From Meghimatium bilineatum (taxonomy: Eukaryota > Mollusca > Gastropoda > Stylommatophora > Philomycidae): a stretch of 64,000 nucleotides of DNA. Under the pieces are notes generated by a model. It saw nothing but the letters and a program-made list of their open reading frames with translations. It ran no database searches and was not told the origin of the DNA. The position numbers and the translations under genes were made by a program. The DNA is taken from contig CM067311.1 of the NCBI GenBank assembly GCA_034231615.1, positions 19,720,173-19,784,172 on the forward strand. Direction: 5' to 3'. Below, in pieces: positions 12,282 to 63,480 of the stretch (positions are counted from its first letter, which is position 1; every line of letters starts with the position of its first letter).

Positions 12282-13245
12282 TGTCACACTCTAATGCTGG
12301 GGAGATCAAGCAGAAATCTCATAGTAGAGATGGGTGTATCACTAGTACACCCCAGTACTGCTGTCATTGCCTCATGTTGGACTTTTTCCAATCTAACAAC
12401 TTGTGTCTGTGACAGTGTTAGTAGGCAGAGGCTATAATCTATGATAGATAGGAACATAATTTGTAGAAGCAGAAACAATACCCACTGCTACATGTTGAAG
12501 GTCGCCATAACCTTGATCACTTTATTAGCCTTCTGAATCATATTTGTGATGTTTGTTGAATGAGACTTCTATCAAAGGATATCCCAAGATATTTAAGGTC
12601 CTGTTCTTTTTCAATGAATGAGCCCATGCAACTGTCAGTGTGTACCTGACCAGATTATCAGTTACGGAGTACCAGACGACCTTTGCTTTCGAGGGATTTA
12701 TCACAGCATTGTATGTTCTGCACCATATTGACAATTGATCTAGTCCACACTGTACACAGTCAGCAATATCTGTTCTATTCCTTCCCATGTTGTATAGTAG
12801 GAATTCCTTCCCATGTTGTATAGTTGGATAACATCAGCGTATGTTAGAACTCTATAGGATGAGTGTAACTAACTATATTAAATGCACCTTCTAGGTCTAT
12901 TGCTGCAACTACAGATTATTCTTTATTCTGAAAACCTTCATAAACTTCATATGCAAGAACTGCTGCATTTGTGAGTGTGTCTCTTCTGGGTCTGTATGCA
13001 CCTAGGTTGTTTGGGAGAATGGCTTTGATCTCTAGTTCCCTGGTTATGCGTCTAGCGACAATTCTTTCCAGCAACTTGCCATACACATTCTGCAGTGTGA
13101 TGATGCAATAACCTTTTATGTCTGTAGCATCTTTGCCTGGTTTTTGCATGGGTATAAGATAGCTTTGTAGCCACTCCTCTTGTACAACTCCTGTTTTCAG
13201 ACTCACATTATAATCGTCTGTGATCTTAGCTAGGATATTCCCCAT
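12282..13245 (-). pseudogene. RNH-B LINE copy (interrupted), RT part
   Basis: Minus-strand pieces follow the RNH-B order. KPGKDATDIKGYCIITLQN and LERIVARRI lie at 12916-13257. WCRTYNAVINPSKA lies at 12525-12788. LCLLTLSQTQVVRLEKVQ and VLGCTSDTPISTMRFLLD lie at 12284-12478 and match the copy at 8.5-10.6 kb almost residue by residue. The catalytic YADD stretch near 12800-12860 is damaged. The element continues upstream at 16757-17565 beyond the inserted RNH-A LINE. Its 3' end, including RNase H, is missing at the junction with RTE-1. Confidence 0.85.
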
Positions 13246-13408
13246 CAAGGCCAGCACCTTGCAGTGGTGATGGGGCTTAGTTCAGCCATCAGGGGCTGGA
13301 AACTAAGACTGGTCGGGCAGTCCCATTCGAGCAGGACCATAGTCCTGCCCAAGTAAGCAGAGTGCTGAAGACGGAGGCATCCAGCCAAAAGGCGCACATA
13401 TAATCAGG

Positions 13409-14401
13409 ATGCCACGCACAAAACACAATGGAAACATGTCTGTATCTATAAAAAGTTATGGTGCCTGCCCTGTGGCGGACGTTCAGGCAGGGACGGTGTC
13501 GGGCCCTATAACTCGAAAGGGCCCAACCTCAGTTACTGAAAGTCCTTCTCAATTGCCTCGAGGAGCCAGGAGGCAAGGGAATAGAGCTACTGGCCAAACA
13601 AACAAACGACCAATAAAAATAATGCACTGGAAAGCTGTGGGTGTCAACAGTAAAAGAGATGGATACAGCAAAAAATTGGAACTTGAAAATGTCCTCAGTG
13701 AAGACCAAGTTAATATATGCTGTATCCAAGAAACACACCTCAGCAGCGACATAGCCTTCAAAATCAGAGGCTACCAGTGCTACCGATCTGACCGAAAGGA
13801 CAGGCGAAAGGGTTGAATTCTGACACTTGTTAAAAACAATATCAGCGCATGTCAGCTGGAAGTATATATGGAAGGGGCAGAATACCAGATGCTCCACCTA
13901 AAAACAGACAGTGCAGAATTCCATCTCCTGAACTACTACTGCCCAAATGATAAACCATTGGCACTAGACACAATTCCAGATAAAGAGAGACTTATGGTGT
14001 GTGGTGACTTCAACAGCCACTCTCAGAGCTGGGGCTACGATCATATCGACAAGAGAGGTGAGGAACTTGAGAGCTGGCAGGATGAAAATAATCTCATCCT
14101 TATTAACCAGCCAGCTGACTCACCAACCTTCTACTCGAGAGCATGGCACACCACCTCTACACCAGATCTGGCATTCCACTCACCAGGCCTGGAATGGAAC
14201 ATCACACGTGTCGTTGGAAAGCAGCTTGGGGGTAGTGACCACAGACCAGTATTTCTGGAAATCCACAATGAATTTACCAAGGACAGCAGCACGCTCACTA
14301 GGTGGAACTATAAGAGGGCAGACTGGAAAATGTACCAGCATTTAACCAGTGTTCTAGCTAAGGACATGAACTTGGACAAAGACATCAATAGAGCAGAGTG
14401 A
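13409..14401 (+). pseudogene. RNH-A APE endonuclease (N-terminal) reading frame
   Basis: A frame from an ATG at 13409. The first 70 codons are basic and S/T/G-rich. The endonuclease fold then begins at KIMHWKAVGV, with CCIQETHL, GDFNSHSQSWG and GGSDHRPV, which are the metal and phosphate-binding motifs of APE-type LINE endonucleases. It nicks target DNA to prime reverse transcription. One TGA at 13814-13816 replaces an expected glycine codon (GGA to TGA by comparison with the family). A 2-bp loss near 14396 shifts the frame into RT; the copy at 55.5 kb keeps those bases. Without these two lesions it would run into the RT. Confidence 0.9.
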
Positions 14402-15863
14402 ATTTAATAGATGTATACTACATGCTGCTAGTAAAACCATACCCAGGGGGGCACGCAAAAACTACAAACCCTACTGGAATGATGAACTGGAAAAGCTGCA
14501 AAATGAGATGGAAACATCTAGACAGCAGGCTGAGAACAGACCTATCCAAGAACATCACAACAAATATCAGCAAACAAAGGCTAAATTTCAAAGAGCCAAG
14601 TTACAAGCCAGACGGAGTAGCTGGAAAGAAAAAACAGAGTCACTGAACCTAGAAAGAGATACTAGGAAATTATGGAAACTTGTAAAACAACTAAATGATG
14701 AAGGTACAGGGAGAAATACCAGGATCACACTTTATAAAGATAGAAACATTTTAACAGGTAAACATGCAGCTGATTACTTTGCAGATTCCTTTGCAGAAGA
14801 CAATAACATCAAAGTCAGCCCAGACAAACAACAGGAGGTTCGAGAGAACCAGCAAAACATTGGACAAGGCGAACCTATACCTGAAGTCATGGAGGCACCA
14901 ATCACAATGAGAGAACTGGAGCATGCAATATCCAAATTGAAAATGAAAAAGTCCCCTGGAGCTGATGGAGTGTCCAATGAAATGATTAGAAACCTGGGAA
15001 TTGCAGCAAGAGCAAAGCTACTGCAGATCTTTAATACAAGCTGGTCCACGGGTAATGTACCACAGGCGTGGAGAGAAGCAATAATGATACCACTCCTCAA
15101 ATCAGGAAAAGATGGCAACACAGTCTCCAACTACAGGCCCATCAGCCTCACAAGCTGTCTATGCAAAACAATGGAACACATTATCAATCTTAGGATGCAG
15201 TGGTACCTTGAAAGTGAAAACCTTCTGGTATCACAGCAAGCAGGTTTCAGACAGTGCTACTCTACTGAAGATCAGGCAACCTACCTCTCCCAAGAGATTG
15301 AGGATGCCTTCCAAGATAAGAAACTGGTACTAGCAGCATGGATAGACCTCAGAAAAGCATTTGATAAGGTCTGGAAAGAAGGGCTCCTAAAGAAATTGCG
15401 AAATTGCAGGGTTAGCTCAAGAATGTACAAATGGGTAAAAGCATACCTGCATAATAGAAGAGCCAGGGTACAATTAGATGGTCGCAAGAGCAAGAAAGTT
15501 CTACTGCGTCATGGAGTCCCCCAGGGAGGAGTCCTGTCGCCCACACTTTTCTTGGTTTACATCAATGACCTAGTTGCTGAACTACCACACAGGATCAAAG
15601 TGGCAATGTATGCTGACGACCTAGTGATCTGGTGCACGGAAGAACATGCAACAGTGGCCACTAAACAAATACAAAGAGCTATCGATGCCCTAACCTTATG
15701 GGCTAATAGATGGTGCATCAGCATTAACACAGATAAGTGCAGCACTACACTTTTTACCCTCTCACCAAAACAAAAAGCCGGTCATATCAAGATAGATGGA
15801 GAGCTCTTGAAAGAAGACAAACAACCCACATACCTCAGAGTTACTTTTGATGCTAAACTGACA
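14399..15863 (+). pseudogene. RNH-A reverse transcriptase reading frame
   Basis: An open frame from the frameshift to 15932. The linker is rich in K, R and Q. RT then has SPGADGVSNEMIRNLG, YRPISLTSCLCKTMEHII, AAWIDLRKAFDKVWKEG, HGVPQGGVLSPTLFLVYIN and MYADDLVIWC (YADD intact), and ends at TYLRVTFDAKLT. At about 15863 the sequence jumps to NTKRGRTEQ. A segment of about 545 bp present in the 35.3-35.85 kb copy (thumb region and linker to RNase H) is deleted, and RNase H follows in a different frame. The RT active site is intact but the polypeptide is cut. Confidence 0.92.
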
Positions 15864-15869
15864 AGGAAT

Positions 15870-16707
15870 ACTAAGCGAGGACGAACAGAACAGTGTGCAG
15901 CGAAGGACAGTCACCCTCAGTTTCCTGGATGAGGAATATCCACAAGATATATGGGTCAGAGTATACACAGATGGGTCAGCACAGAATGCAGTGAGGAATG
16001 GAGGTGCAGGTGTATATATAGAATATCCACACAAGCCTAGAGATACAATCAGAACACCGACAGGAAAATTCTGCAATAATTATGATGCAGAAATCCAGGC
16101 AATTAGTGTGGCAGCTAAAAAACTGCTGAACTCCAACTCTGAACTACAGCCTGTGACAGATGCAAGGTCAGTGCTTCAAGCTCTCCAGTCTGAAAAACTA
16201 ACAGACTTGAAAAAACTACTTAGCGAATTGTCTTACCAGTATAGGGTAACCATGCAGTGGATACCCTCTCACTGTGGAATACCAGGAAATGAAAAAGCAG
16301 ACCAACTGGCTAAGGAAGGTGCTGCCGAAGACCAACCTGATATACCAATCACCTACCATCAGAAAAAACAGATGATCAAGTCAATAAGAAAGCCACAAAC
16401 GCCAACACAAGATGACTATCATATTATGAACAGACCAGAACAAGTTATAATTCTACGTCTCAGAACAGGACACAACCGACTCCGCAGTCACATGTATACA
16501 AAGTTCAAGATTGGCAACACAGCCATGTGTACATGTGGACAGGCAGCACAGAGTGCGAAACATATACTTCAAGAGTGTTCTGAGCATGAAACGCTGAGGC
16601 AGACATATTGGCCAGAGGAAACAACACTGGAATCAAAACTCTATGGGACACTGTATGAACTACAAAAGACAGTGAGTTTTATTCAGGAGACAGAATTACA
16701 GATATAG
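15870..16707 (+). pseudogene. RNH-A RNase H and C-terminal zinc segment
   Basis: The frame from 15895 carries RNase H: VYTDGSAQN, NYDAEIQAIS, a shortened VTDARSV, and IPSHCGIPGNEKADQLA, which supply the D, E, D and H/D ligands. The VFL strand before the third aspartate is missing through a 9-bp deletion relative to the 36-kb copy. The C-terminus has MCTCGQAAQSAKHILQECSEH, a C-x-C...H...C zinc-binding type segment common in these LINEs. The stop at 16705-16707 is followed by a 3' UTR and GAA tail. RNase H removes template RNA after reverse transcription. Confidence 0.9.
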
Positions 16708-33204: not shown

Positions 33205-33556
33205 AAGTCTAATTGTCTCAGATAGTGAAGTTTCTGTCCTCAGCAATGGTCTCACATTCATCCCTCTCTGTCCTGCATATGATCAATACTCTCTTCTTCA
33301 TGCTATCCGCCGCTACCATCGTCGTCTTAGGCTCCATTATCATTTCTTTGTCAAAGTGTCATCTGATACTGATGATTTGTTCTCTAGATATGAACAGAAG
33401 AAATATCCTTGAACTTCCAAACCCGGTGCATCCCAGGCTTTTGATCTTTACATCAGGAATACCACAACATTAATTCACTTCATCACAACCGCATAAATCG
33501 CTCCAACATCACCCTGAAGAATTTCGCGCCTTGGCTCATCTTCGCCGCCAGAAAGG
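33205..33556 (+). pseudogene. Penelope-like element copy C, N-terminal part
   Basis: SDSEVSVLSNGLTFIP, CPAYDQYSLLHAIRRYHRRL and EEFRALAHLRRQK are the N-terminal RT segments of the family. The frame is interrupted by the RNH-A LINE at 33557 and resumes at 36785 with [14 protein letters not shown]. Confidence 0.85.
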
Positions 33557-36500
33557 CTTATGGTGTATGGTGGCTTCAACAGCCACTCTCAGAGCTGGGG
33601 CTACGATCATATCGACAAGAGAGGTGAGGAACTTGAGAGCTGGCAGGATGAAAATAATCTCATCCTTATTAACCAGCCAGCAGACTCACCAACCTTCTAC
33701 TCGAGAGCATGGCACACCACCTCTACACCAGACCTGGCATTCCACTCACCAGGCCTGCAATGGAACATCACACGTGTCTTTGGAAAGCAGCTTGGGGGTA
33801 GTGACCACAGACCAGTATTTCTGGAAATTCACAATGAATATACCAAGGACAGCAGCACGCTCACTAGGTGGAACTATAAGAGGGCAGACTGGAAAATGTA
33901 CCAGCATTTAACCAGTGCTCTAGCTAAGGACATGAACTTGGACAAAGACATCAATAGAGCAGTTTGTGAATTTAATAGATGTATACTACATGCTGCTAGT
34001 AAAACCATACCCAGGGGGGAGGGGGTCACGCAACAACTACAAACCCTACTGGAATGATGAACTGGAGAAGCTGCAAAATGAGATGGAAACATCTAGACAG
34101 CAGGCTGAGAACAGATCTAGCCAAGAACATCACAACAAATATCAGCACAAAGGCTAAATTTCAAAGAGAAAAAACAGAGTCGCTGAACCTAGAAAGAGAT
34201 ACTAGGGAATTAGGGAAACTTGTAAAACAACTAAATGAAGAAAGTACAGGGAGAAATACCAGGATCATACTTTATAAAGATAGAGACATTTTAACAGGTA
34301 AACATGCAGCTGATTACTTTGCAGATTCCTTTGCAGAAGACAATAACGTCAGTCAGCCCAGACAAGCAACAGGAGGTTGGAGCGAACCAGCAAAGCATTG
34401 AACAAGGCGAACCTATACCTGAAGTCATGGAGGCACCAATCACAATGAGAGAACTGGAGAATGCAATATCCAAATTGAAAATGAAAAAGTCCACTGGAGC
34501 TGATGGAGTGTCCAATTAAATGATTAGAAACCTGGGAATTGTAGCAAGAACACAGCTACTGCAGATCTTTAATACAAGCTGGTCCACAGGTAATGTACCA
34601 CAGGCGTGGAGAGAAGCAATAATGATACCACTCCTCAAATCAGGAAAAGATGGCAACACAGTCTCCAACTACAGGCCCATCAGCCTCACAAGCTGTCTTG
34701 CAAAACAATGGAACGCATTATCAATCTTAGGATGCACTGGTACATTGAAAGTGAAAACCTTCTGTTATCACAGCAAGCAGGTTTCAGACAGTGCTACTCT
34801 ACTGAAGATCAGGCAACCTACCTCTCCCAAGAGATTGAGGATGCCTTCCAAGATAAGAAACTGGTACTAGCAGCATGGATAGACCCCAGGAAAGCATTTG
34901 AAAAGGTCTGGAAAGAAGGGCTCATAAAGAAATTGCAGGGTTAGCTCAAGAATGTACAAATGGGTAAATGCATACCTGCATAATAGAAGAGCCAGGGTAC
35001 AATTAGATAGTCGCAAAAGCAAGAAAGTCCTACTGCGTCATGGAGTCCCCCAGGGAGGAGTCCTGTCACCCACACTTTTCTTGGTTTACATCAATGACCT
35101 AGTTGCTGAACTACCACATGGGATCAAAGTGGCAATGCCAAACCTTATGGGAAAATAGATGGTGCGTCAGCATTAACACAGATAAGTGCAGCACTACACT
35201 CTTTACCCTCTCACCAAAACAAAAAGCCGGTCATATCAAGATGGAGTGCTCTTGAAAAAAGACAAACAAACAACATACCTCGGAGTTACTTTTGATGATA
35301 AGCTGACATGGAAGCAGCACATAAACAAAGCAACAACAAAAGCCAGGAGGAAGTTAGCTATCCTGAGAAAACTAAGTGGAACCACATGGGGAGCCAGAGG
35401 GAATATACTCGGTAAAGTTTACCAGCAAGGCATAAGACCACACCTGGAATATGGTTCAGCAGCGTGGTGTCCTGTATCAAACACCACATTACAAGATCTA
35501 GATAAAGTGCAAAACCAGGCACTTAGAATAATGCTGAGAGCAATGAATCAACACTCATAGCAGAGATGCAGAAAATGGGAAGAATGCAAACACTTGGCGA
35601 ACGCAAAGACACAAAAGTACTAATTCAAGCAGAAAAGTTTCAGTGTATGCCAAGTCATCCAATGAAGGAAAGATTCCAAAATCTAGCAATGGGGCGACTG
35701 AAAAGAAGCAGCTTTATCCATCAAGCTAAACGACTCCGTAGACAACTTACAGACCTGTCTGAAGTTGACAGCCCCTTAAGGTCTGTACCAGAACAAACCC
35801 CGTTGAGTGAAAGGCATGGAATGCAAATATACATTCAGACCCATATGAAAGGAATACTAAGCGAGGACGAACTGAACAGTGTGCAGCGGAGGACAGTCAC
35901 CCTCAGTTTCCTGGATGAGGAATATCCACAAGATATATGGGTCAGAGTATACACTATATATATATTCTATAGTGATATAGTAATATAGAATATATTCTAT
36001 ATATATCTGTGATGGGTCAGCACAGAATGATGTGAGGAATGGAGGTGCAGGTGTATATATAGAATATCCACACACGCCTAGAGATACAATCAGAACACCG
36101 ACAGGAAAATTCTGCAATAATTATGATGCTGAAATCCAGGCAATTAGTGTGGCAGCTAAAAAACTGCTGAACTCCAACTCTGACATACAGCCTGTGGTAT
36201 TCCTGACAGATTCAAGGTCAGTGCTTCAAGCTCTCCAGTCTGGTAAACTAACAGACTTGAAAAAACTACTTAGCGAATTGTCTTACCAGTATAGGGTAAC
36301 CATGCAGTGGATACCCTCTCACTGTGGAATACCAGGAAATGAAAAAGCAGACCAACTGGCTAAGGAAGGTGCTGCCGAAGACCAACCTGATATACCAATC
36401 ACCTACCATCAGAAAAAACAGATGATCAAGTCAATAAGAAAGCCACAAACGCCAACACAAGATGACTATCATATTATGAACAGATCAGAGCAAGTTATAA

Positions 36501-36784
36501 TTCTACGTCTCAGAACAGGACACAACCGACTCCGCAGTCACATGTATACAAAGTTCAAGATTGGCAACACGGCCATGTGTACTTGTGGACAGGCAACACA
36601 GAGTGCCAAACATATACTTCAAGAGTGTTCTGAGCATGAAACGCTGAGGCAGACATATTGGCCAGAGGAAACAACACTGGAATCAAAGCTCTATGGGACT
36701 GTATGAACTACAAAAGACACTGAGTTTTATTAAGGAGACAGAATTACAGATATAGACATGTTTCAATTGAACGAAAGAAGAAAA
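33557..36784 (+). mobile_element. RNH-A LINE copy inserted in Penelope copy C
   Basis: Truncated at the 5' end within the endonuclease (starts near the FNSHSQSWG motif; SDHRPV retained) and running to the GAAAGAAGAAAAAA tail. RT is broken by a stop at 34517-34519, a frameshift near 34700, another near 34935 and a deletion of about 95 bp at about 35137 that removes YADD. The thumb and linker region (35250-35850), absent from the 13-kb copy, is present here. RNase H (36032-36706) keeps VFLTDSRSV and IPSHCGIPGNEKADQLA but its first part is separated by a 54-bp AT-rich insertion at 35955-36008. Clear target duplications were not seen. Dead copy, close in sequence to the other two. Confidence 0.92.
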
Positions 36785-40359: not shown

Positions 40360-40840
40360 TGCAGAAATTCAGCTATTGAATTCACTGAGTTTAGCGAAAG
40401 TGAAACTGCTCAGTGAAAGCACAATTTTTATAATGTTACAGAACAGTCTGAACATGAGAAACGTTTGTGCCCACTGGTTCTTGCATCTGTTGACATATGA
40501 ATAGCACAAATTAGGGTTGATTACTGGAGTCAGTTGCTTGAAATGTGGCAGTCAAAAAATATGTTGATGACCATGCTGACAGTAGATGAGACTTGGGTTC
40601 ACCATTATAAGCCAGAATCCAACATTTCTTGCATGCAGTGGGAAAACACCAGGCACACCAACACATGTCAAGCCAAGAGCACAGAATCTGCAAGAAAAGT
40701 GATGGTGGCTGTTTTTGGGACACCAATGGTGTCATATTGAAGGTTTCTCTGCCTCATCGGAAACAGTTAATGGTTAGTATTATGCAGATCTCCTTACCAA
40801 ACTAAGAAAGACTGGGTAAGAAAAGGGGGGTAAACGTGAA
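40360..40840 (+). pseudogene. mariner transposase remnant (second copy)
   Basis: Plus strand: MRNVCAHWFLHLLTYE, then LEMWQSKNMLMTMLTVDETW and VHHYKPESNISCMQWEN, then KSTESARKVMVAVFGT. This is the first-aspartate region (VDETWVHHY) of a mariner transposase of a different lineage from the 27.7-kb element. The second and third catalytic regions are not recognisable and no terminal repeats were found. Confidence 0.85.
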
Positions 40841-42800: not shown

Positions 42801-42826
42801 TAATGGTGGTTTAATATTATCTGGAT

Positions 42827-43262
42827 CTGGTGGTCCCTTACACATTCCCAGAGGAGGAAGAGTGGGTTGACTTCATCGCCGGTTGCAATGATGATCGCCG
42901 GACGATGACGATGTTGCCACCTACTGTACTTGACGAAGCATTGGGGAAGAAGACATACATTGCACAATGACTGAGGAGAGGGCGGCACAGATCCTCCAAC
43001 CTTTCTGGAGGGCGCGTTTGTCGGTAGGATCAAGTTTATCAGACATACAGATCCTGTTGATGATGAGGGTAGGTGGGTCATTGTGGACCAGATGGACTCG
43101 ATAAAGAAAAGTCACAAGAAATGTGGTGAGATCGTGGTGTTCTCTCTGGAAATGAAGCCTGGCGAGTTAACAGGGATCGATAAGCCCTATTACGAGAACG
43201 CCTACCAACATACCGCAACTGTGTATGGCTTTTATCGACTCAGCCAGACCCTCTCAATCTAG
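42827..43262 (+). pseudogene. Two overlapping frames of unknown function
   Basis: Frame 1 (42827 to TGA about 42970) reads VVPYTFPEEEEWVDFIAGC and ends TYIAQ. A second frame starts at an ATG overlapping that stop (ATGA) with MTEERAAQILQPF; after a one-base shift it continues FLEGAFVGRIKFIRHTDP, GRWVIVDQMDSIKKSHKKCG and YENAYQHTATVYGFYRL to a stop at 43260-43262 (about 98 residues). Amino acid use is clearly protein-like. I do not recognise either family. The ATGA overlap is typical of compact viral genomes. The frameshift marks decay. Confidence 0.5.
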
Positions 43263-43549
43263 CATCAATACGTAATGGTGACCTTAATTGCGTCGCATAG
43301 AAAGTGGCGGAACGCTTCAAATGTGTTCTTCGAGGTCAGGGATTAACACACACCAGAAGGCAATAAACACAGTAGGAAGAGAAACGAGTCCGTGCCTCGG
43401 GGGTAACGATCAACAACCTGGCCAAGTTGGAGAGGATCCTCAAATGAGCCATTATCCTGCTCGATATTGCAGGCAAGATTATCTACAGCAGCAGCAAATA
43501 TCAGGCCAGTAGGTGGAAACCGTGACTGACTATATTGGATCTGTTGAGC

Positions 43550-44372
43550 GTCTTCGTCCGCCTTCCAGCTCGCTCGGCTGGTAAAGATAACGAACCTGGA
43601 CATCAGAGGTATCGGATTCTCTGCAAAACCTACGGGACGACCTGGGGCCACAGGAGGGTCGCGCCGTCACTCCCTGGAGTTTGAGAGCATCCAGATGCTT
43701 CTTACCTGTCAGCCGAGTCGGCTCATTTTTGATTTCCTTAACAACAGCTGGGAGGCGTGCCACCCACTCCGATGATCGAGAAGAAGACCCACGGACTACA
43801 ATCAATAGCTCTTGATCATGCTGGTGACCAAAAAGCCGCTCGATCCCTTGCTCTCAATGAATCTCCACACGGCTGCGTCGTATCATAGTCCTATGCTCCT
43901 CCAGTGGCTGAGAGACCTCGCCCATGAATTCACGCAGAGGGTCCACCATGTATAGCTTAGGCCACGCGAGCGGCCTACGTTGTAGATTTGTGTCAGCCCT
44001 TCAGCAACCTCGGCGCTATTCTTCGAGCTCAGAGGCTCCACTTCTTTGTAATGACTTATCCAAGTCTACAACTGTTAGAGCGTATTTGTACGTTTTGCTT
44101 CCTGCGGAGCAGTTGCTCGCCTGGCTGCCATATATTGCCCCGCAGGGGACGTGATCATGAGGCAGAAAAAGCAGGTCAGCCTGATGTGCCGCGTTTGACT
44201 CCTATATGTCAAATTTCGGCCATGGTATGTGGCGAGGTTCGGGTAAATAGATCTGCCATATTGCCTGTTTTTTAAGCCAGTCCTGAGCCTCACTATCCGT
44301 AACTTTTGCCGCCGTGGCAAGCTGATTGATGGCTGAAGCACCCTTCCAGTACCCTCTTGGGCAATAATACAC
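43550..44372 (-). pseudogene. Maverick/Polinton-type integrase
   Basis: Minus strand from 44372: GYWKGASAINQLATAAKVT and WLKKQAIWQIYLPEPRHIP (N-terminal zinc/helical region), then after a stop HQADLLFLPHD (first catalytic D), YKYALTVVDL, a frame change, LAWPKLYMVDPLREFMGEV (second D), a stop, EQGIERLFG (third acidic region, shortened: the usual stretch between GIVER and the next helix is missing), EWVARLPAVVKEI, NEPTRLTGKK and VRYLYQPSELEGGRRRSTDP (C-terminal strand-rich domain). This wording matches integrases that I know as 'transposon-derived' proteins of Maverick type in invertebrates (family recall, not a search). Several stops and frameshifts. Confidence 0.7.
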
Positions 44373-44425
44373 GGCAGAGCAATGCTACACAGCATGTTTC
44401 ATAATTCAGTTTCGTGTGCTATGTA

Positions 44426-44668
44426 TTAAAACAAGCTGATAAGTCTCCAACAAGCTGCCGCTAGGGGTTGAGGATGCTGCCTAGTATTCGGTACGTTTAT
44501 TCGAATCACCTTTCTAGCAAAGACATCAATGGTGTGTTCATTCTCATGCCAGACAGGGAGACACGGGATGAGTATATAATAGATTCCCCCCAGCTCTGGC
44601 ACGTTATGGAGTCTGGCTATATAGCCCACCCTTAACATAGCACAGTAGAGTTCGTCGGCGAGATCCAT
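44426..44668 (-). CDS. Hypothetical ORF upstream of integrase
   Basis: An 80-codon minus-strand frame, MDLADELYCAMLRVGYIARL to NVPNTRQHPQP, about 50 bp upstream of the integrase remnant in the same orientation. No motif recognised. It may be part of another element gene or chance. Confidence 0.25.
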   Translation of the reverse strand: MDLADELYCAMLRVGYIARLHNVPELGGIYYILIPCLPVWHENEHTIDVFARKVIRINVPNTRQHPQPLAAACWRLISLF

Positions 44669-45074
44669 TTCTCAGCTTCCCTATTACTAGTAATACTTCC
44701 TATTACTATTACTTTAAAAAAAAATATTATTGGGCTTGGTGACAGCTGATATTGCACCCAGATGTAGATGGGATGTGCTGTGGCATCATGGCAGCGACCA
44801 TTTGCGATGTGTCTTGTTGGTGGACAAAGGAAAAAGTAAACAACAGAAAGAGGAGTATAATAGGGTAGGCATATCACTTTCGTGACTCCGCACTTCAACG
44901 TCTGAAGACCAGAACACATTCATCATTTGGAATCTCGGCCCAAGCTGAAGATGGTAGTGAGATAAAACTTGTATATATGAGTTTGGCTCTAGAATTTCAC
45001 AGAAAACCCCTCTATGGATCCTGAGGGTCGATGACGACACGCTCCTAGGCAGTGCAGCACGCTTACTTTGGCCG

Positions 45075-46027
45075 ATCTCGGCGATACAACGGAGTTCAGC
45101 TAGCTGGGGGTGCCACACAAGACTTATAGATTTAAAATAGACGACAAGGGCTACTACACTCGAGTAGCAATCTACCATCCTGAAGACGATGAATGGGATA
45201 TTCAGCTCGAGATATGGCGTGCGGCTGCCTACATGGAGCACAATCATATGCTAGTGCCTCTCGAGAATCTGGGCACGTGTCTCGTTTCGTACCAGGCATG
45301 CAAAGTGCTGATCTGACAGGATAAAACCACCAGTGTTTCTTATAAATCGTTTTTGAAAGTCATCAGTCTCAAGACCCTTATTTATGGCGCGCAGGTGACA
45401 GAGACCACACCCAGTGTCAGATTTGGCATGAAGGCGGTCACCGAATTTGACACCGATCTGCTTAATCTAGTCAAACCGCCACCAGTGTCAACAATATACC
45501 TCGAACTAGTAATTCTGTCAGCCCCCCCCCCCCCCCGGACAGAACCTGTTTCTGTCCTTGCGGGCATTTCTGTCTAATGGCCATCAGTCGCCATATTTCG
45601 CCATATGTCATAAATTATGGGGCCAATGTGAAGAGGTAGGCACGCAACAGCTCTGAATATTTCTGTTGAGCTCAAAGATGTCGGGGTGGACAAGATCACT
45701 TTTGGTATGACTTGGGTCTTTGTCCGGCTGTTCTCGTCAGCCCGGTCAGCGCCTCTTGTATTGAGCATCTCATCTCCCAGTTGAAGGCATGAGTGCCTGC
45801 CAATAGTATTCACAATGTTGTATCCAAAAGTTGGACCAAAGTTTCCGTCTCGCACGCAATAGCTAGATTGATAATTTCCTGACTAAAGAAATTAAAGAAA
45901 GACGTACATTCTAGAAAAAATATTAACGCGTTATGATTGTAGCTCAAGGCATAAGCACTGGTGCTGGAATTACTGCGCTCGGCATGGAGACTGTCGGAAT
46001 TCCCCTAATGGTAACTGGGTGGGAGCT
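45075..46027. repeat. Segment duplicated at 62332-63246, with element ORFs
   Basis: Starts ATCTCGGCGATACAACGG, ends ACTGGGTGGGAGCT. The plus frame 45110-45316 (PHKTYRFKIDDKGYYTRV, DEWDIQLEIWRAAAYMEHNH) ends in TGA; 45353-45577 continues in the same frame. The minus frame 45574-45855 (IPKVILSTPTSLSSTEIFRA) is also open, so the coding strand there is unresolved. Near 45933 MIVAQGISTGAGITALG starts a glycine-rich frame. A C run at about 45523-45535 interrupts. Copy 1 has 30 bp (about 45963-45992) missing from copy 2. Confidence 0.7.
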
Positions 46028-46084
46028 TTTCCCAGCATAGTGCTTCTAGATCTGTGGGCTAGATGTTTCTTTCTGGTATTTTCG

Positions 46085-47900
46085 TGCGATAGAATGCAGA
46101 GTAATTCATCATCATTAAGTGCCGTCTCCGCAACGAAGTGTGGCTGCAACGTATCTCCAACATCTCCTGTCTCTTGTCTTAGTGGTGCACTCTGCTAGAC
46201 TGTAACCTGCCCATCGTGTGATGTTACTCTCCCACTTGTATCTCTGCCTACCTCTTGCTCGCTTCCCTTTGACTTTACCTTCAAGTAAGGCCTTCCATAC
46301 GGTGTCATGTATTTTAATGTGTCCAAAGTATTTTATTTGCCTGATCTTTATTTCTCTTGTAGTTCTTTCTTCATATTGTCGTAAGCACCTCTTTATTTGT
46401 TTTCTTTTCTTTCCATGATGTTCTCCGTATTCTTCTATATACCCACATCTCAAAGGCATTAATTTTGCCTTCTAATTGTTTATTTAGTGTCCATGTTTCT
46501 GAGCCATACATTAATATGGAATAGATGTAGCATTTTATAATTCTCATTTTTAACTTGTTTGTAATTTGTTTAGATATTAATAATTTCCTCATGTCATTGA
46601 AGGTACTTTTAGCCATTCCTATTCTCCTTTTAACTTCTGTTTCACATCTGCCATCATTTGTGACTATGTGTTCAAGATATTGATACTGTTTTACTTGTTG
46701 TAGTTTCTCTCCCTGTATGTTTATGTTTACCTCCTGTTCTGTGTCTTTGCTGATTATAATGGTTTTTGTTTTTTCGATATTTATATCCAGTCCATATTCA
46801 TTACTTGATTTATTGACTTGATCTATTAGTCTTTGTAGTTCATGTTCACTTTCTCCCAAAAGAACAGTGTCATCTGCATATCTAAGGTTGTTTATTATTT
46901 TCCCATTGATCTTGAGTCCTGGTATTTCTATTATATTTTTAAAGATATTCTCTGTGTAGATATTAAATAGGCTTGGTGATAAAATGCATCCTTGTCTTAC
47001 CCCTCTTCTTATTTCTATGTATGGAGAGTAGCTGTTTTCACACCTTATTGATGCAGTTTGTTCCCAATATATATTTCTAATCAGTCTGATGTCTTTTCCA
47101 TCTATGCCTATTTCTTGAAGACATTTGATTAATTTTTCATGTTGGACTCTGTCAAAGGCCTTGCTGTAGATGAAGCAAGTATAGATACTTTTTTGGACTT
47201 CTATATATTTATCTATCACTAGCCGGATACTCAATATAGCTTCTCTGGTTCCTTTGTTTTTCCTAAAACCGAATTGTTCTTCACAGACCTCCATGTCTAT
47301 CTTGTTCTTAATTCTTTCATGTATTATTTTTAGAAGTATTTTAGTTAGATAACTCCTTAGACTTATTCTTCTATATTCGGTACAGTCCACAGCCCTGGGC
47401 TTCTTAGGTAGTGGTATGAATATTGATGATGTTAGGTCTTTAGGTATGTGGCCTGATTCATATATGTCATTGCAAAGTGCTGTGATAGTATCTACGCCAA
47501 ACTCATTTAGAGTTTTTATTATATGTCTGCTGTTATGTTGTCCGAGCCTGCAGCCTTTCCACATTTTATTGAATTTAGTGCATGTTCTACTTCTGATTTC
47601 AGTATTGCTGGTCCATCATTGTTGTTCTAACATTCCATGTTCCTATTCTAATATGTTGTTTCCTAAACTTTAGATGTTGTTGATCCGTTGCTTGGCTTTG
47701 GGGTGTACGTGGTAAGGTCCCAGTCTTTTCCACGGTGGTCAGCCAATATTCATTATTATGCCCAGAACGTGCCTCTTGTGCGCCACACACTTTTTGCTGT
47801 TTCACCGTTTGAGCCGATGATCCATTTGGATTCCTCCGCCTCGCGTGCCGTCACAGACTTTTTTTTCTAGGGATGGACATTCCCAATTGTTGACTTACGG
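46085..47900 (-). pseudogene. RTE-3 LINE with internal deletion of the endonuclease
   Basis: Minus strand. The N-terminus at 47805-47640 reads HIRIGTWNVRT, the start of an RTE endonuclease, but within about 30 bp it passes into the RT leader. A single 397-codon frame (46371-47564) then gives SIFIPLPKKPRAVDCTEYR, EQFGFRKNKGTREAI, GVRQGCILSPSLFNIY, NLRYADDTVLLGES (YADD intact) and YGSETWTLNKQL. The C-terminus (46115-46459) has IKYFGHIKIHD and TKTRDRRCWRYVA, followed by an ATGATGA tail. About 1.2 kb of endonuclease is lost between intact ends. CFIYSKAFDRVQH lacks one residue of the usual motif (FIDYSKAFD). Confidence 0.92.
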
Positions 47901-52656: not shown

Positions 52657-55617
52657 TCTTCTTCTTCTTCTTTCGTTCACTTGAAACATGTCTATATCTG
52701 TAATTCTCCTTAATAAAACTCACTGTCTTTTGTAGTTCATACAGTGTCCCATAGAGTTTTGATTCCAGTGTTGTTTCCTCTGGCCAATATGTCTGCCTCA
52801 GCGTTTCATGCTCAGAACACTCTTGAAGTATATGTTTCGCACTCTGTGCTGCCTGTCCACATGTACACATGGCTGTGTTGCCAATCTTGAACTTTGTATA
52901 CATGTGACTGCGGAGTCGGTTGTGTCCTGTTCTGAGACGTAGAATTATAACTTGTTCTGGTCTGTTCATAATATGATAGTCATCTTGTGTTGGTGTTTGT
53001 GGCTTTCTTATTGACTTGATCATCTGTTTTTTCTGATGGTAGGTGATTGGTATATCTGGTTGGTCTTCGGCAGCACCTTCCTTAGCCAGCTGGTCTGCTT
53101 TTTCATTTCCTGGTATTCCACAGTGAGAGGGTATCCACTGCATGGTTACCCTATACTGGTAAGACAATTCGCTAAGTAGTTTTTTCAAGTCTGTTAGTTT
53201 TTCAGACTGGAGAGCTTGAAGCACTGACCTTGCATCTGTCAGGAATACCACAGGCTGTAGGTCAGAGTTGGAGTTCAGCAGTTTTTTAGCTGCCACACTA
53301 ATTGCCTGGATTTCTGCATCATAATTATTGCAGAATTTTCCTGTCGGTGTTCTGATTGTATCTCTAGTCTTATGTGGATATTCTATATATACACCTGCAC
53401 CTCCATTCCTCACGGCATTCTGTGCTGACCCATCTGTGTATACTCTGACCCATATATCTTGTGGATATTCCTCATCCAGGAAACTGAGGGTGACTGTCCT
53501 TCGCTGCACACTGTTCTGTTCGTCCACGCTTAGTATTCCTTTCACATGGGTCTGAATGTATATTGGCATTCCATGTCTTTCACTCCACGGGGTTTGTTCT
53601 GGTACAGGCCTTAATGGGCTGTCAACTTCAGGTAGGTCTGTAAGTTGTCTGCAGAGTCGTTTAGCTTGATGGATAAAGCTGCTTCTTTTCAGTCGTCCCA
53701 TTGCTAGATTTAGGAATCTTTCCTTCATTGGATGACTTGGCATACACTGAAACTTTTCTGCCTGAATTAGTACCTGAATTTTGTGTCTCTGCGTTCGCCA
53801 AGTGTTTGCATTCTTCCCATTTTCTGCATCTCTGCTATGGGTGTTGATTTCATTGCTCCCAACATTATTCTAAGTGCCTGGTTTTGCACTTTATCTAGAT
53901 CTTGTAATGTGGTGTTTGATGCAGGACACCACGCAGCTGAACCATATTCCAGGTGTTGTCTTATGCCTTGCTGGTAAACTTTACTGAGTATATTCCCACT
54001 GGCTCCCCATGTGGTTCCACTTAGTTTTCTCAGGATAGCTAACTTCCTCCTGGCTTTTGTTGTTGCTTTGTTTATGTGCTACTTCCATGTCAGTTTAGCA
54101 TCAAAAGTAACTCCGAGGTATGTGGGTTGTTTGTCTTCTTTCAAGAGATCTCCATCTATTTTGATATGACCGGCTTTTTGTTTTGGTGAGAGGGTAAAAA
54201 GTGTAGTGCTGCACTTATCTGTGTTAATGCTGACGCACCATCTATTAGCCCATAAGGTTAGGGCATCGATAGCTCTTTGTATTTGTTTAGTGGCCACTGT
54301 CGCATGTTCTTCTGTGCACCAGATCACCAGGTCGTCAGCATACATTGCCACTTTGATCCCGTGTGGTAGTTCAGCAACTAGGTCATTGATGTAAACCAAG
54401 AAAAGTGTGGGCGACAGGACTCCTCCCTGGGGGACTCCATGACGCAGTAGAACCTTCTTGCTCTTGCGACCATCTAATTGTACCCTGGCTCTTCTATTAT
54501 GCAGGTATGCTTTTACCCATTTGTACATTCTTGAGCTAACCCTGCAATTTCGCAATTTCTTTAGGAGCCCTTCTTTCCAGACCTTATCAAGTGCTTTTCT
54601 GAGGTCTATCCATGCTGCTAGTACCAGTTTCTTATCTTGGAAGGCATCCTCAATCTCTTGGGGATGATCTTCAGTAGAATAGCACTGTCTGAAACCTGCT
54701 TGCTGTGATACCAGAAGGTTTTCACTTTCAAGGTACCACTGCATCCTAAGATTGATAATGCGTTCCATTGTTTTGCATAGACAGCTTGTGAGGCTGATGG
54801 GCCTGTAGTTGGAGACTGTGTTGCCATCTTTTCCTGATTTGAGGAGTGGTATCATTATTGCTTCTCTCCACGCCTGTGGTACATTACCCGTGGACCAGCT
54901 TGTATTAAAGATCTGCAGTAGCTTTGCTCTTGCTGCAATTCCCAGGTTTCTAATCATTTCATTGGACACTCCATCAGCTCCAGGGGACTTTTTCATTTTC
55001 AATTTGGATATTGCATGCTCCAGTTCTCTCATTGTGATTGGTGCCTCCATGACTTCAGGTATAGGTTCGCCTTGTCCAATGTTTTGCTGGATCTCTCGAA
55101 CCTCCTGCTGTTTGTCTGGGCTGACTTTGACGTTATTGTCTTCTGCAAAGGAATCAGCTGCATGTTTACCTGTTAAAATGTTTCTATCTTTATAAAGTGT
55201 GATCCTGGTATTTCTCCCTGTACCTTCATCATTTAGTTGTTTTACAAGTTTCCATAATTTCCTAGTATCTCTTTCTAGGTTCAGCGACTCTGTTTTTTCT
55301 TTCCAGCTACTCCGTCTGGCTTGTAACTTGGCTCTTTGAAATTTAGCCTTTGTTTGCTGATATTTGTTGTGATGTTCTTGGCTAGGTCTGTTCTCAGCCT
55401 GCTGTCTAGATGTTTCCATCTCATTTTGCAGCTTTTCCAGTTCATTCCAGTAGGGTTTGTAGTTTTTGCGTGCCCCCCTGGGTATGGTTTTACTAGCAGC
55501 ATGTAGTATACATCTATTAAATTCACTCACTGCTCTATTGATGTCTTTGTCCAAGTTCATGTCCTTAGCTAGAACACTGGTTAAATGCTGGTACATTTTC
55601 CAGTCTGCCCTCTTATA
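52657..55617 (-). mobile_element. RNH-A LINE copy, 5'-truncated, well preserved
   Basis: Minus strand, from just after the endonuclease (KRADWKMYQHLTS) to the GAA tail. Frame 1 (54079-55596, 505 codons) is RT with SPGADGVSNEM, AAWIDLRKALDKVW, GVPQGGVLSPTLFLVYIND and MYADDLVIWC; it ends at a TAG where other copies have CAG. Frame 2 (52601-53743) holds RNase H (VYTDGSAQN, NYDAEIQAIS, VFLTDARSV, IPSHCGIPGNEKADQLA) and the zinc segment. Between them lie the thumb region and a 5-bp insertion near 53772. A small deletion removes about five residues after STEDH. Target duplication is about 12 bp (AGAAAAATGTCT on both sides). This is the least decayed RNH-A copy, but it is inactive. Confidence 0.95.
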
Positions 55618-62331: not shown

Positions 62332-63480
62332 ATCTCGGCGATACAACGGAGTTCAGCTAGCTGGGGGTGCCACACAAGACTTATAGATTTAAAATAGACG
62401 ACACGGGCTACTACACTCGAGTAGTAATCGACCATCCTGACGACGATGAATGGGATATTCAGCTCGAATTATGGCGTGCGGCTGCCTACATGGAGCACAA
62501 TCATATGTTAGTGCCTCTCGAGAATCTGGGCACGTGTCTCGTTTCGTACCAGGCATGCAAAGTGCTGATCTGACAGGATAAAACCACCAGTGTTTCTTAT
62601 AAATCGTTTTTGAAAGTCATCAGTCCCAAGGCCTTTATTTATGGCGCGCAGGTGACAGAGACCACACCAGTGTCAGATTTTGCATGCAGGAGGTCACCGA
62701 ATTTGACACCGATCTGCTTAATCTAGTCAAACCGCTGCCAGTGTCAACAGTATACCTAAAAATAGTAATTATGCTCCCCCCCCCCGGACAGAACCTTTCT
62801 GTCCTTGTGGGCATTTCCGTCAAATGGGCATCAGTCTTAAAACCCGCCATATTTCGCCATATGTCATACATTATGGGGCCAATGGGAAGAGGTAGGCACG
62901 CAACAGCTCTGAATATTTCTGTTAAGCTCAAAGATGTTGGGGTGGACAAGATCACCTTTGGTATGACTTGGGTCTTTTTTCGGCTGTTGTTCTCGTCCAG
63001 CCCGGTCAGCACTTCTTGTAATTGAGCATCTCATCTCCCAGTTGAAGGCATGAGTGCCTGCCAATAGTATTCACAATGTTGTATCCAAAAGTTGGATCAA
63101 AGTTTGCGTCTCGCACGCAATAAGCTAGATTGATAATTTCCTGAGAAAGACGGACATTCCAGAAAAAGTATTAACGCGTTATGATTGTAGCTCAGGGCAT
63201 AAGCACTGGTGTCGGAATTCCCCTAATGGTAACTGGGGTGGGAGCTCAATTCGATTCATCAACTGATGAAAGAGGCTTTGAGTGACTCGAAATGCAGTGA
63301 AAAGGAATTTAAAACGATCGTTGAAGATTATGATCGTTATCAGACTATGAAGGAAGAGTATGCTCTAAAGCTCATGCTCCGCAGGACAGCACAACAAACA
63401 AAAAAGAAATGATGCAACAAGCTTGAGTGGAAATTCGCAAAGAGTTTGCCAAATATATCTCTGGTGTCTATTGTCTATCC
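62332..63480. mobile_element. Second copy of Polinton-like segment plus extension
   Basis: 62332-63246 is about 95% identical by eye to 45075-46027, including shared stops in the plus frame; the plus ORF 62367-62573 differs at five residues (for example K to T, E to D, I to L). After 63246 the sequence goes beyond copy 1: a plus frame from about 63246 reads LNSIHQLMKEALSDSKCSEK, EFKTIVEDYDRYQTMKEEYA and LMLRRTAQQTKKK, stop at about 63410. This helical segment resembles the end of an uncharacterised protein that I associate with integrase-bearing elements (from memory only). No integrase in this copy. Confidence 0.6.

What the first reader, a model, noticed from the sequence alone, without database searches (positions are those of the whole stretch)
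42827..46080. Virus-like integrase block with unrecognised companion genes
A GC-richer island among AT-rich transposons carries a Maverick-type integrase pseudogene (both catalytic D regions readable) on the minus strand and, on the plus strand, two coding-like frames joined by an ATGA stop/start overlap, plus further frames. No polymerase B or packaging ATPase is visible, so it may be a fragment of a Polinton/adintovirus-like element or of an undescribed relative. The companion proteins are unknown to me.
Basis: partly seen in the sequence, partly recalled or inferred. Interest (0 to 1): 0.75.

Follow-up and report, generated by a model that had tools for sequence, protein, structure and literature searches.

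The report
Broken Polinton-like virus fossil, animal genome
The block is a dead, internally deleted relic of a virus-like jumping element (a Polinton relative) in an animal genome, and one of its genes is a piece of an unusual polymerase-helicase replication protein.

Summary
The island is real: a fossil of a Polinton-like element in an animal genome (1.61 Gb; Wnt genes). It holds pieces in one gene order: part of a replication protein (42821-43507, +), a broken rve integrase (44378-43512, -) with small gene C (44668-44402, -), then part of E, most of B and part of F (44864-46034, +). Other copies carry more: a PF03175-type polymerase, an A32-type ATPase, a capsid-sized gene. The "ATGA-linked" frames are one gene broken by a frameshift, and that gene is the replicase, so "no polymerase" is wrong in effect. 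In copy L026 this replicase runs on into palm-like motifs (motif C "ATD"), a superfamily-1 helicase and an HNH-like end, the anatomy published for Tlr1-like pPolB-S1H proteins. A sister form in the same genome has an ordinary pPolB but shares the upstream gene, a 75-residue N-terminal stretch and the integrase, as if the replicase had been exchanged inside one gene. B is an orphan family (4 database homologues). Fusion in one polypeptide, and that all window pieces come from one element, are inferred. Not an adintovirus by its integrase (no chromodomain). New variant of a known kind.

The parts
42821..43507 (+). A: remnant of the N-terminal / vOTU-like part of the element's large replicase (type 2), broken by frameshifts and stops; the ATGA at 42967 lies inside it
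   Evidence: tblastn of L018/L026/L020 frames onto the window, pieces 44-61% identical, best E 1e-44; DNA copies at 68-74%
43504..43523 (.). junction: replicase fragment ends, truncated 3' end of the integrase begins; read as a deletion joint
   Evidence: DNA alignments of block A end at 43503-43504 in four copies (L018, L019, L020, L026); those of the integrase block start at 43522-43525 in three (L014, L016, L021) and 43535 in L022. In L026 the two are about 3.5 kb apart, with palm, helicase and HNH-like coding sequence between
43512..44378 (-). INT: rve integrase pseudogene, without the last ~46 residues
   Evidence: 52.5% to P0003, residues 7-290 of 336; 54% to the open frame of the C10 copy
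44402..44668 (-). C: small gene directly upstream of INT, same strand; function unknown
   Evidence: 55-56% to L014:3972-4244 (+), also in L016, L021, L022; dN/dS 0.34
44730..44850 (.). 121-bp dispersed repeat between the C and E remnants
   Evidence: 21 of the 51 rows match this stretch only, at 94-97% identity
44864..45003 (+). E: residues about 186-232 of a 244-codon open frame seen in L015:4440-5171 (-)
   Evidence: E = 1e-8; E also lies upstream of B in L011, L012, L013, L017, L023, L024
45011..45742 (+). B: most of the gene of a ~263-residue protein, broken by stops and frameshifts
   Evidence: 4 database homologues, best E = 7e-60; 62% to the open frame of the C10 copy; 37 rows in the genome
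45831..46034 (+). F: part of a ~150-residue protein with a glycine-rich hydrophobic stretch (by eye)
   Evidence: 63% to L015:3170-3619 (-), 44% to L018:2304-2747 (-)
62334..63289 (+). second relic in the same window: B (62334-63016) and F (63145-63289)
   Evidence: (91% DNA identity to the first copy over 888 bases)

Best explanation
The island is an internally deleted, inactive copy of a Polinton-like integrating DNA virus (element) of an animal genome. Its family uses an rve integrase to insert its linear genome and, in the form to which this copy seems to belong, a large replicase of the Tlr1-like kind: N-terminal region, vOTU-like part, divergent family-B palm, superfamily-1 helicase, HNH-like end. 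Gene order in the window's orientation: G(+), replicase(+) tail to tail with INT(-), C(-), then ATPase and probable capsid genes, then E(+), B(+), F(+). Two large deletions (most of the replicase plus the integrase end; what lay between C and E) and a 121-bp repeat gave the present island. Shown here: homology and order of the pieces, decay, palm followed by helicase at 8 loci. Inferred: that palm and helicase are one polypeptide, protein-primed replication, packaging into a capsid, that E, B and F are virion or assembly proteins, that all window pieces come from one element. The window copy cannot move by itself: integrase and replicase are both broken.
For: INT family and its tail-to-tail pairing with DNA_pol_B_2 in L001. 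The C10 copy holds PolB, INT (open frame; rve 31.8 bits, just under the cut-off of 32.6), C, A32-type ATPase (PF04665 E = 3e-10), a 389-codon capsid-sized frame, E, B and F. A is collinear with the replicase frame of L018/L020/L026; in L026 the coding sequence runs on into palm motifs DMTECFPASF and VATDSLYIKK, a Walker A GGGGSGKTT (AAA_30, 27.6 bits over a cut-off of 27), a motif-VI-like end and then the INT C-terminus. Palm matches fall at 16 places and helicase matches at 16; at 8 places palm is followed by helicase on the same strand, at 6 of them about 240-320 nt apart, at the other two about 810 and 1550 nt (tally by hand of the 32 rows and the 30 rows). In C9 palm-side matches end at 603 and helicase matches begin at 613 of L035. 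The published anatomy of Tlr1-like proteins agrees: vOTU, palm with the first Asp of motif C missing, S1H, GIY-YIG or HNH end, rve integrase in Tlr1 (passages of PMC11071308).
Against: No unbroken frame spans palm and helicase in any copy read here, and 8 of 16 palm places show no helicase match. Profile comparison of the type-2 N-terminal part and palm with type-1 polymerase gave no match (2-3 sequences each). Pfam finds no polymerase domain in the palm frames; UvrD_C_2 and HNH are below cut-off, and the HNH-like end was seen in L026 only. The palm query L018:2734-3663 ends in about 20 residues of a B tail, a deletion joint of that copy. No Tlr1 sequence was compared. Window B is nearer to B of the type-1 C10 copy (62%) than to the second B subfamily (28%), which leaves room for a chimaera. 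dN/dS between closely related A copies is near neutral (L026/L020 0.89, L026/L018 0.67), as expected of decaying copies.
Confidence: 0.76

Rival explanations
1. The island is two elements side by side: a type-2 replicase fragment (A) joined by chance to INT, C, E, B and F of a type-1 (ordinary pPolB) element.
For: Abrupt junction at 43504-43523; window B is closest to the C10 type-1 copy (62%).
Against: Order and orientation (replicase +, INT -, tail to tail) are the same as in the type-2 copy C8 (L026) and, by position, in C9, although in C9 the integrase end is partly inverted; a single internal deletion is simpler.
Confidence: 0.25
2. A is only a fast-evolving N-terminus of the ordinary Polinton pPolB, and there is no Tlr1-like protein.
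For: Type-1 and type-2 proteins share an N-terminal stretch of 75 residues at 52% identity and the G gene upstream at 66%.
Against: Beyond that stretch no similarity was found (weak test). DNA copies of A run on into an ATD palm and, in L026, a helicase, not into a PF03175 match.
Confidence: 0.08
3. It is an adintovirus relic.
For: Animal host, rve integrase, PolB in the sister form.
Against: No chromodomain in the full-length integrase frame L014:4238-5272 or at the complete C-terminus in L001, whereas the more distant integrase of L002 shows one in the same test.
Confidence: 0.07
4. An LTR retrotransposon or other ordinary element.
For: The rve domain alone is shared with retroelements (established knowledge; no call).
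Against: In the C10 copy the neighbours are a polymerase, an A32-type ATPase and shared small genes.
Confidence: 0.01

Closest known systems
Polintons / Mavericks (animal)
   Same: rve integrase, PF03175-type pPolB in the sister form, A32/FtsK-type packaging ATPase, capsid-sized gene, many decayed genomic copies
   Different: the form in this window carries a palm-helicase protein in place of pPolB; B has no Pfam or PDB match
Tlr1 element of Tetrahymena and Tlr1-like (pPolB-S1H) replicases of polinton-like viruses and transpovirons
   Same: rve integrase (Tlr1) with a large protein: vOTU-like motifs, palm with the first Asp of motif C missing, S1H after the palm, nuclease-like end (passages of PMC11071308)
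   Different: animal host; shares an N-terminal stretch, the upstream G gene and the integrase with a pPolB-bearing sister element of the same genome
Oxyrrhis marina PLV helicase-pPolB fusion (PMC12721341, passages seen)
   Same: S1H joined with pPolB in an endogenised element
   Different: there the helicase is N-terminal, a full exonuclease is kept and a tyrosine recombinase is present instead of rve integrase
Adintoviruses (definition seen in passages of PMC11071296)
   Same: animal-associated, rve integrase
   Different: no chromodomain on this integrase

Membership tests
Polinton / Maverick | rve-family integrase | tested here: met
   L001 39.4 bits over the cut-off of 32.6; C10 copy 31.8 bits, just under it; the broken window copy scores in no Pfam family
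Polinton / Maverick | protein-primed PolB (PF03175) | tested here: inconclusive
   met by L001 (E = 2e-15) and by similarity in the C10 copy (69-73% in its better pieces; its own frame gave no Pfam match); not in the form whose fragment lies in the window
Polinton / Maverick | FtsK/A32 packaging ATPase | tested here: met
   L028:1098-1772, PF04665 E = 3e-10; not found in the window
Polinton / Maverick | double jelly-roll capsid protein and penton | tested here: inconclusive
   L028:2-1168 has the size and place; no Pfam match, no convincing PDB match; likeness to a Polinton capsid protein is recalled, not tested
Polinton / Maverick | Ulp1-type protease | tested here: inconclusive
   none among the 35 distinct frames (34 of the animal genome, 1 of L001) scanned with Pfam; other frames were not scanned
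Polinton / Maverick | terminal inverted repeats and 6-bp target duplication (recalled) | not tested
   element ends were not located
Tlr1-like element | rve integrase with palm-S1H protein instead of pPolB | tested here: inconclusive
   palm-helicase order at 8 of 16 palm places, INT tail to tail in L026; one unbroken frame not seen
Tlr1-like element | palm motif C without the first Asp | tested here: met
   by eye: VATDS in L026 and L036, VATDT in L018, VATNN in L035; DTDS in L001
Tlr1-like element | superfamily-1 helicase | tested here: met
   AAA_30 27.6 bits over the cut-off of 27, narrowly; UvrD_C_2 15.4 bits, below its cut-off
Tlr1-like element | sequence clade with Tlr1 / transpoviron helicases | not tested
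   no reference sequence was at hand
Adintovirus | integrase with C-terminal chromodomain | tested here: not met

The most novel reading that the evidence does not exclude
An animal Polinton lineage exchanged its replicase inside one gene: the upstream gene, an N-terminal stretch of ~75 residues and the integrase stayed, while the rest was swapped between an ordinary pPolB and a Tlr1-like vOTU-palm-S1H-HNH protein, and both forms colonised the same animal genome with the same E-B-F module, in which B is a new protein family.
Probability: 0.55. Interest if true: 0.62.

Novelty: new variant of a known kind. Interest (0 to 1): 0.5.

Why it matters
Tlr1-like pPolB-S1H replicases are used to tie together Polintons, polinton-like viruses, Tlr1 and transpovirons. 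In the passages seen here they are described from a ciliate, from polinton-like viruses and from transpovirons; the species key of a 2013 figure with a superfamily-1 helicase tree includes Hydra (PMC3671162), so an animal relative may already be in print. Both replicase types in one animal genome, sharing the flanking genes and the start of the gene, would make the proposed replicase replacement directly traceable by sequence.

Tried and rejected
Pfam and PHROGs on ten separate window frames: nothing significant (best E 0.29 and 0.056). PDB by sequence: nothing convincing for INT, B profile, capsid-sized frame, X frame, palm, helicase (best E-values 0.08 or worse). IMG/VR scans with INT, A, B, PolB, ATPase, palm and capsid-sized queries: 7 scans by exact short peptides, no confirmed relative. 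Phage records: no match for INT DNA or palm. Homologues of A of 193-612 residues: none of 15 candidates; a larger protein could not have been found with that query length. AlphaFold model of B: mean pLDDT 38.7, too poor to search with. I first read the sharp block ends at 43503 and 43523 as ends of separate small elements or retrocopies; rejected because they are this copy's own joints (copies share sequence beyond them). I first took an antisense stretch at 43346-43490 for the integrase C-terminus; rejected.

Full report
What was checked. The window is a stretch of contig C14 of a 1.61-Gb genome in 32 contigs. I take it for an animal genome: PF00110 (Wnt, an animal family by recall) gives 65 rows there, all over the cut-off, and does not ring in the 14 control genomes. 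The island is GC-richer than its direct neighbours; on the right it borders sequence shared at 86-92% with L021 and L022 from 46106 on, which by eye is the end of an RTE-like element.

The integrase. The minus-strand frame 44384-43533, read in one frame with X at four stops, has 2418 homologues at E <= 0.001 among 3465 candidates; of the 120 listed, 119 carry rve (PF00665) by the precomputed column. Names shown in that list are two molluscs (Elysia, Liolophura) and bacterial MAGs. In the MAG contig L001 an integrase of this family stands tail to tail with a DNA_pol_B_2 gene, which ties the family to Polinton-like elements. Of 23 stretches with a matching pattern in the genome contigs, 2 encoded a relative.

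Companion B. The frames at 45014-45739 match four database proteins of 262-266 residues (51-62% identity, best E = 7e-60, 4 of 336 candidates). The genome gives 37 rows of B matches, at 24 places by my count, 7 of them with a stop-free match of more than 180 residues; two subfamilies are about 30% identical. dN/dS between two open copies of the second subfamily is 0.17; between the subfamilies 0.54. B has no Pfam or PDB match; the structure model was too poor to use.

The larger element. The island occurs elsewhere in the genome only in parts (51 rows, 40 of 434 candidates scored, so a lower bound). I fetched 17 of these places and stretches next to four of them. At C10 (L029, L014, L028, L015) the pieces lie in the window's order with more genes: a polymerase 69-73% identical to L001's in its better pieces and 45-57% in others, INT as an open frame, C, a further small frame D, an ankyrin-repeat frame, an A32-type ATPase, a 389-codon frame of capsid-gene size, then E, B and F. 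A repeat of about 3.2 kb with long frames, also found at about 13-17, 33-37 and 53-55 kb of the window, sits inside that copy. A was not found in that copy.

Companion A is the replicase. The A frames match, in order, one long open frame in L018, L020 and L026, so the ATGA overlap is a frameshift site within one gene. In L026 the coding sequence runs on into palm motifs (DMTECFPASF; VATDSLYIKK), a helicase (GGGGSGKTT; AAA_30 just over cut-off) and an HNH-like end, then meets the integrase tail to tail. Motif names are my reading by eye. A second copy, C9, shows palm and then helicase without a gap, but its HNH end is missing. A third, C19 (L036), shows the palm end only. A Cys motif (DGDFNC) and a His motif (VHNGHAW) in L018 fit the published vOTU description, by eye only.

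Comparison. PMC11071308 (passages seen) describes Tlr1-like proteins as vOTU-palm-S1H with GIY-YIG or HNH ends and with the first Asp of motif C changed, in Tlr1 (with rve integrase), polinton-like viruses and transpovirons. PMC12721341 (passages) notes the polymerase-first order of those and reports a helicase-first fusion in a dinoflagellate. The original fusion paper (PMC5499653) is not held. Seven paper searches (listings) and passages of seven papers showed me no description of a Tlr1-like replicase in an animal Polinton; Hydra is named in the species key of a 2013 figure with a superfamily-1 helicase tree (PMC3671162), so absence from print is not claimed.

Type 1 against type 2. L026's replicase and the C10 polymerase share an N-terminal stretch of 75 residues at 52% (E = 2e-16), and gene G upstream is 66% identical over 91 residues; beyond that no similarity was found, also by profile (few sequences, so weak evidence). 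The simplest reading is exchange of the replicase body inside the gene.

Limits. Fusion in one polypeptide, protein priming and capsid assembly are inferred. Whether the window's A and its INT-B part come from one element is likely but not proven.

Noticed in passing
62334-63289: A second relic of the same family (B and F pieces), 91% identical in DNA to the first, about 17 kb away; further copies lie on the same contig (C14).
   Followed up: partly
44730-44850: A 121-bp dispersed repeat with 21 further matches at 94-97% identity in the genome (a lower bound) lies inside the relic; kind of element not determined.
   Followed up: no
L002 (4385 bases): A contig filed under Saccharibacteria carries a chromodomain rve integrase beside DNA_pol_B_2, so it looks like a eukaryotic Polinton contig misbinned in a bacterial MAG; L001 (Oligoflexia MAG) looks the same.
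   Followed up: no
L028:3301-3840: An ankyrin-repeat frame lies beside the ATPase in the C10 copy, with matches in L021, L022, L023 and L031.
   Followed up: no
46371-47564: A 397-codon minus-strand frame that by eye is an RTE-like reverse transcriptase borders the island; a mariner-like fragment lies near 40534-40740 (by eye).
   Followed up: no
13243-16704, 33549-36752, 52706-55617: Several copies of a repeat with long frames, mostly 90-99% identical in protein to one inserted in the C10 copy; not classified.
   Followed up: no
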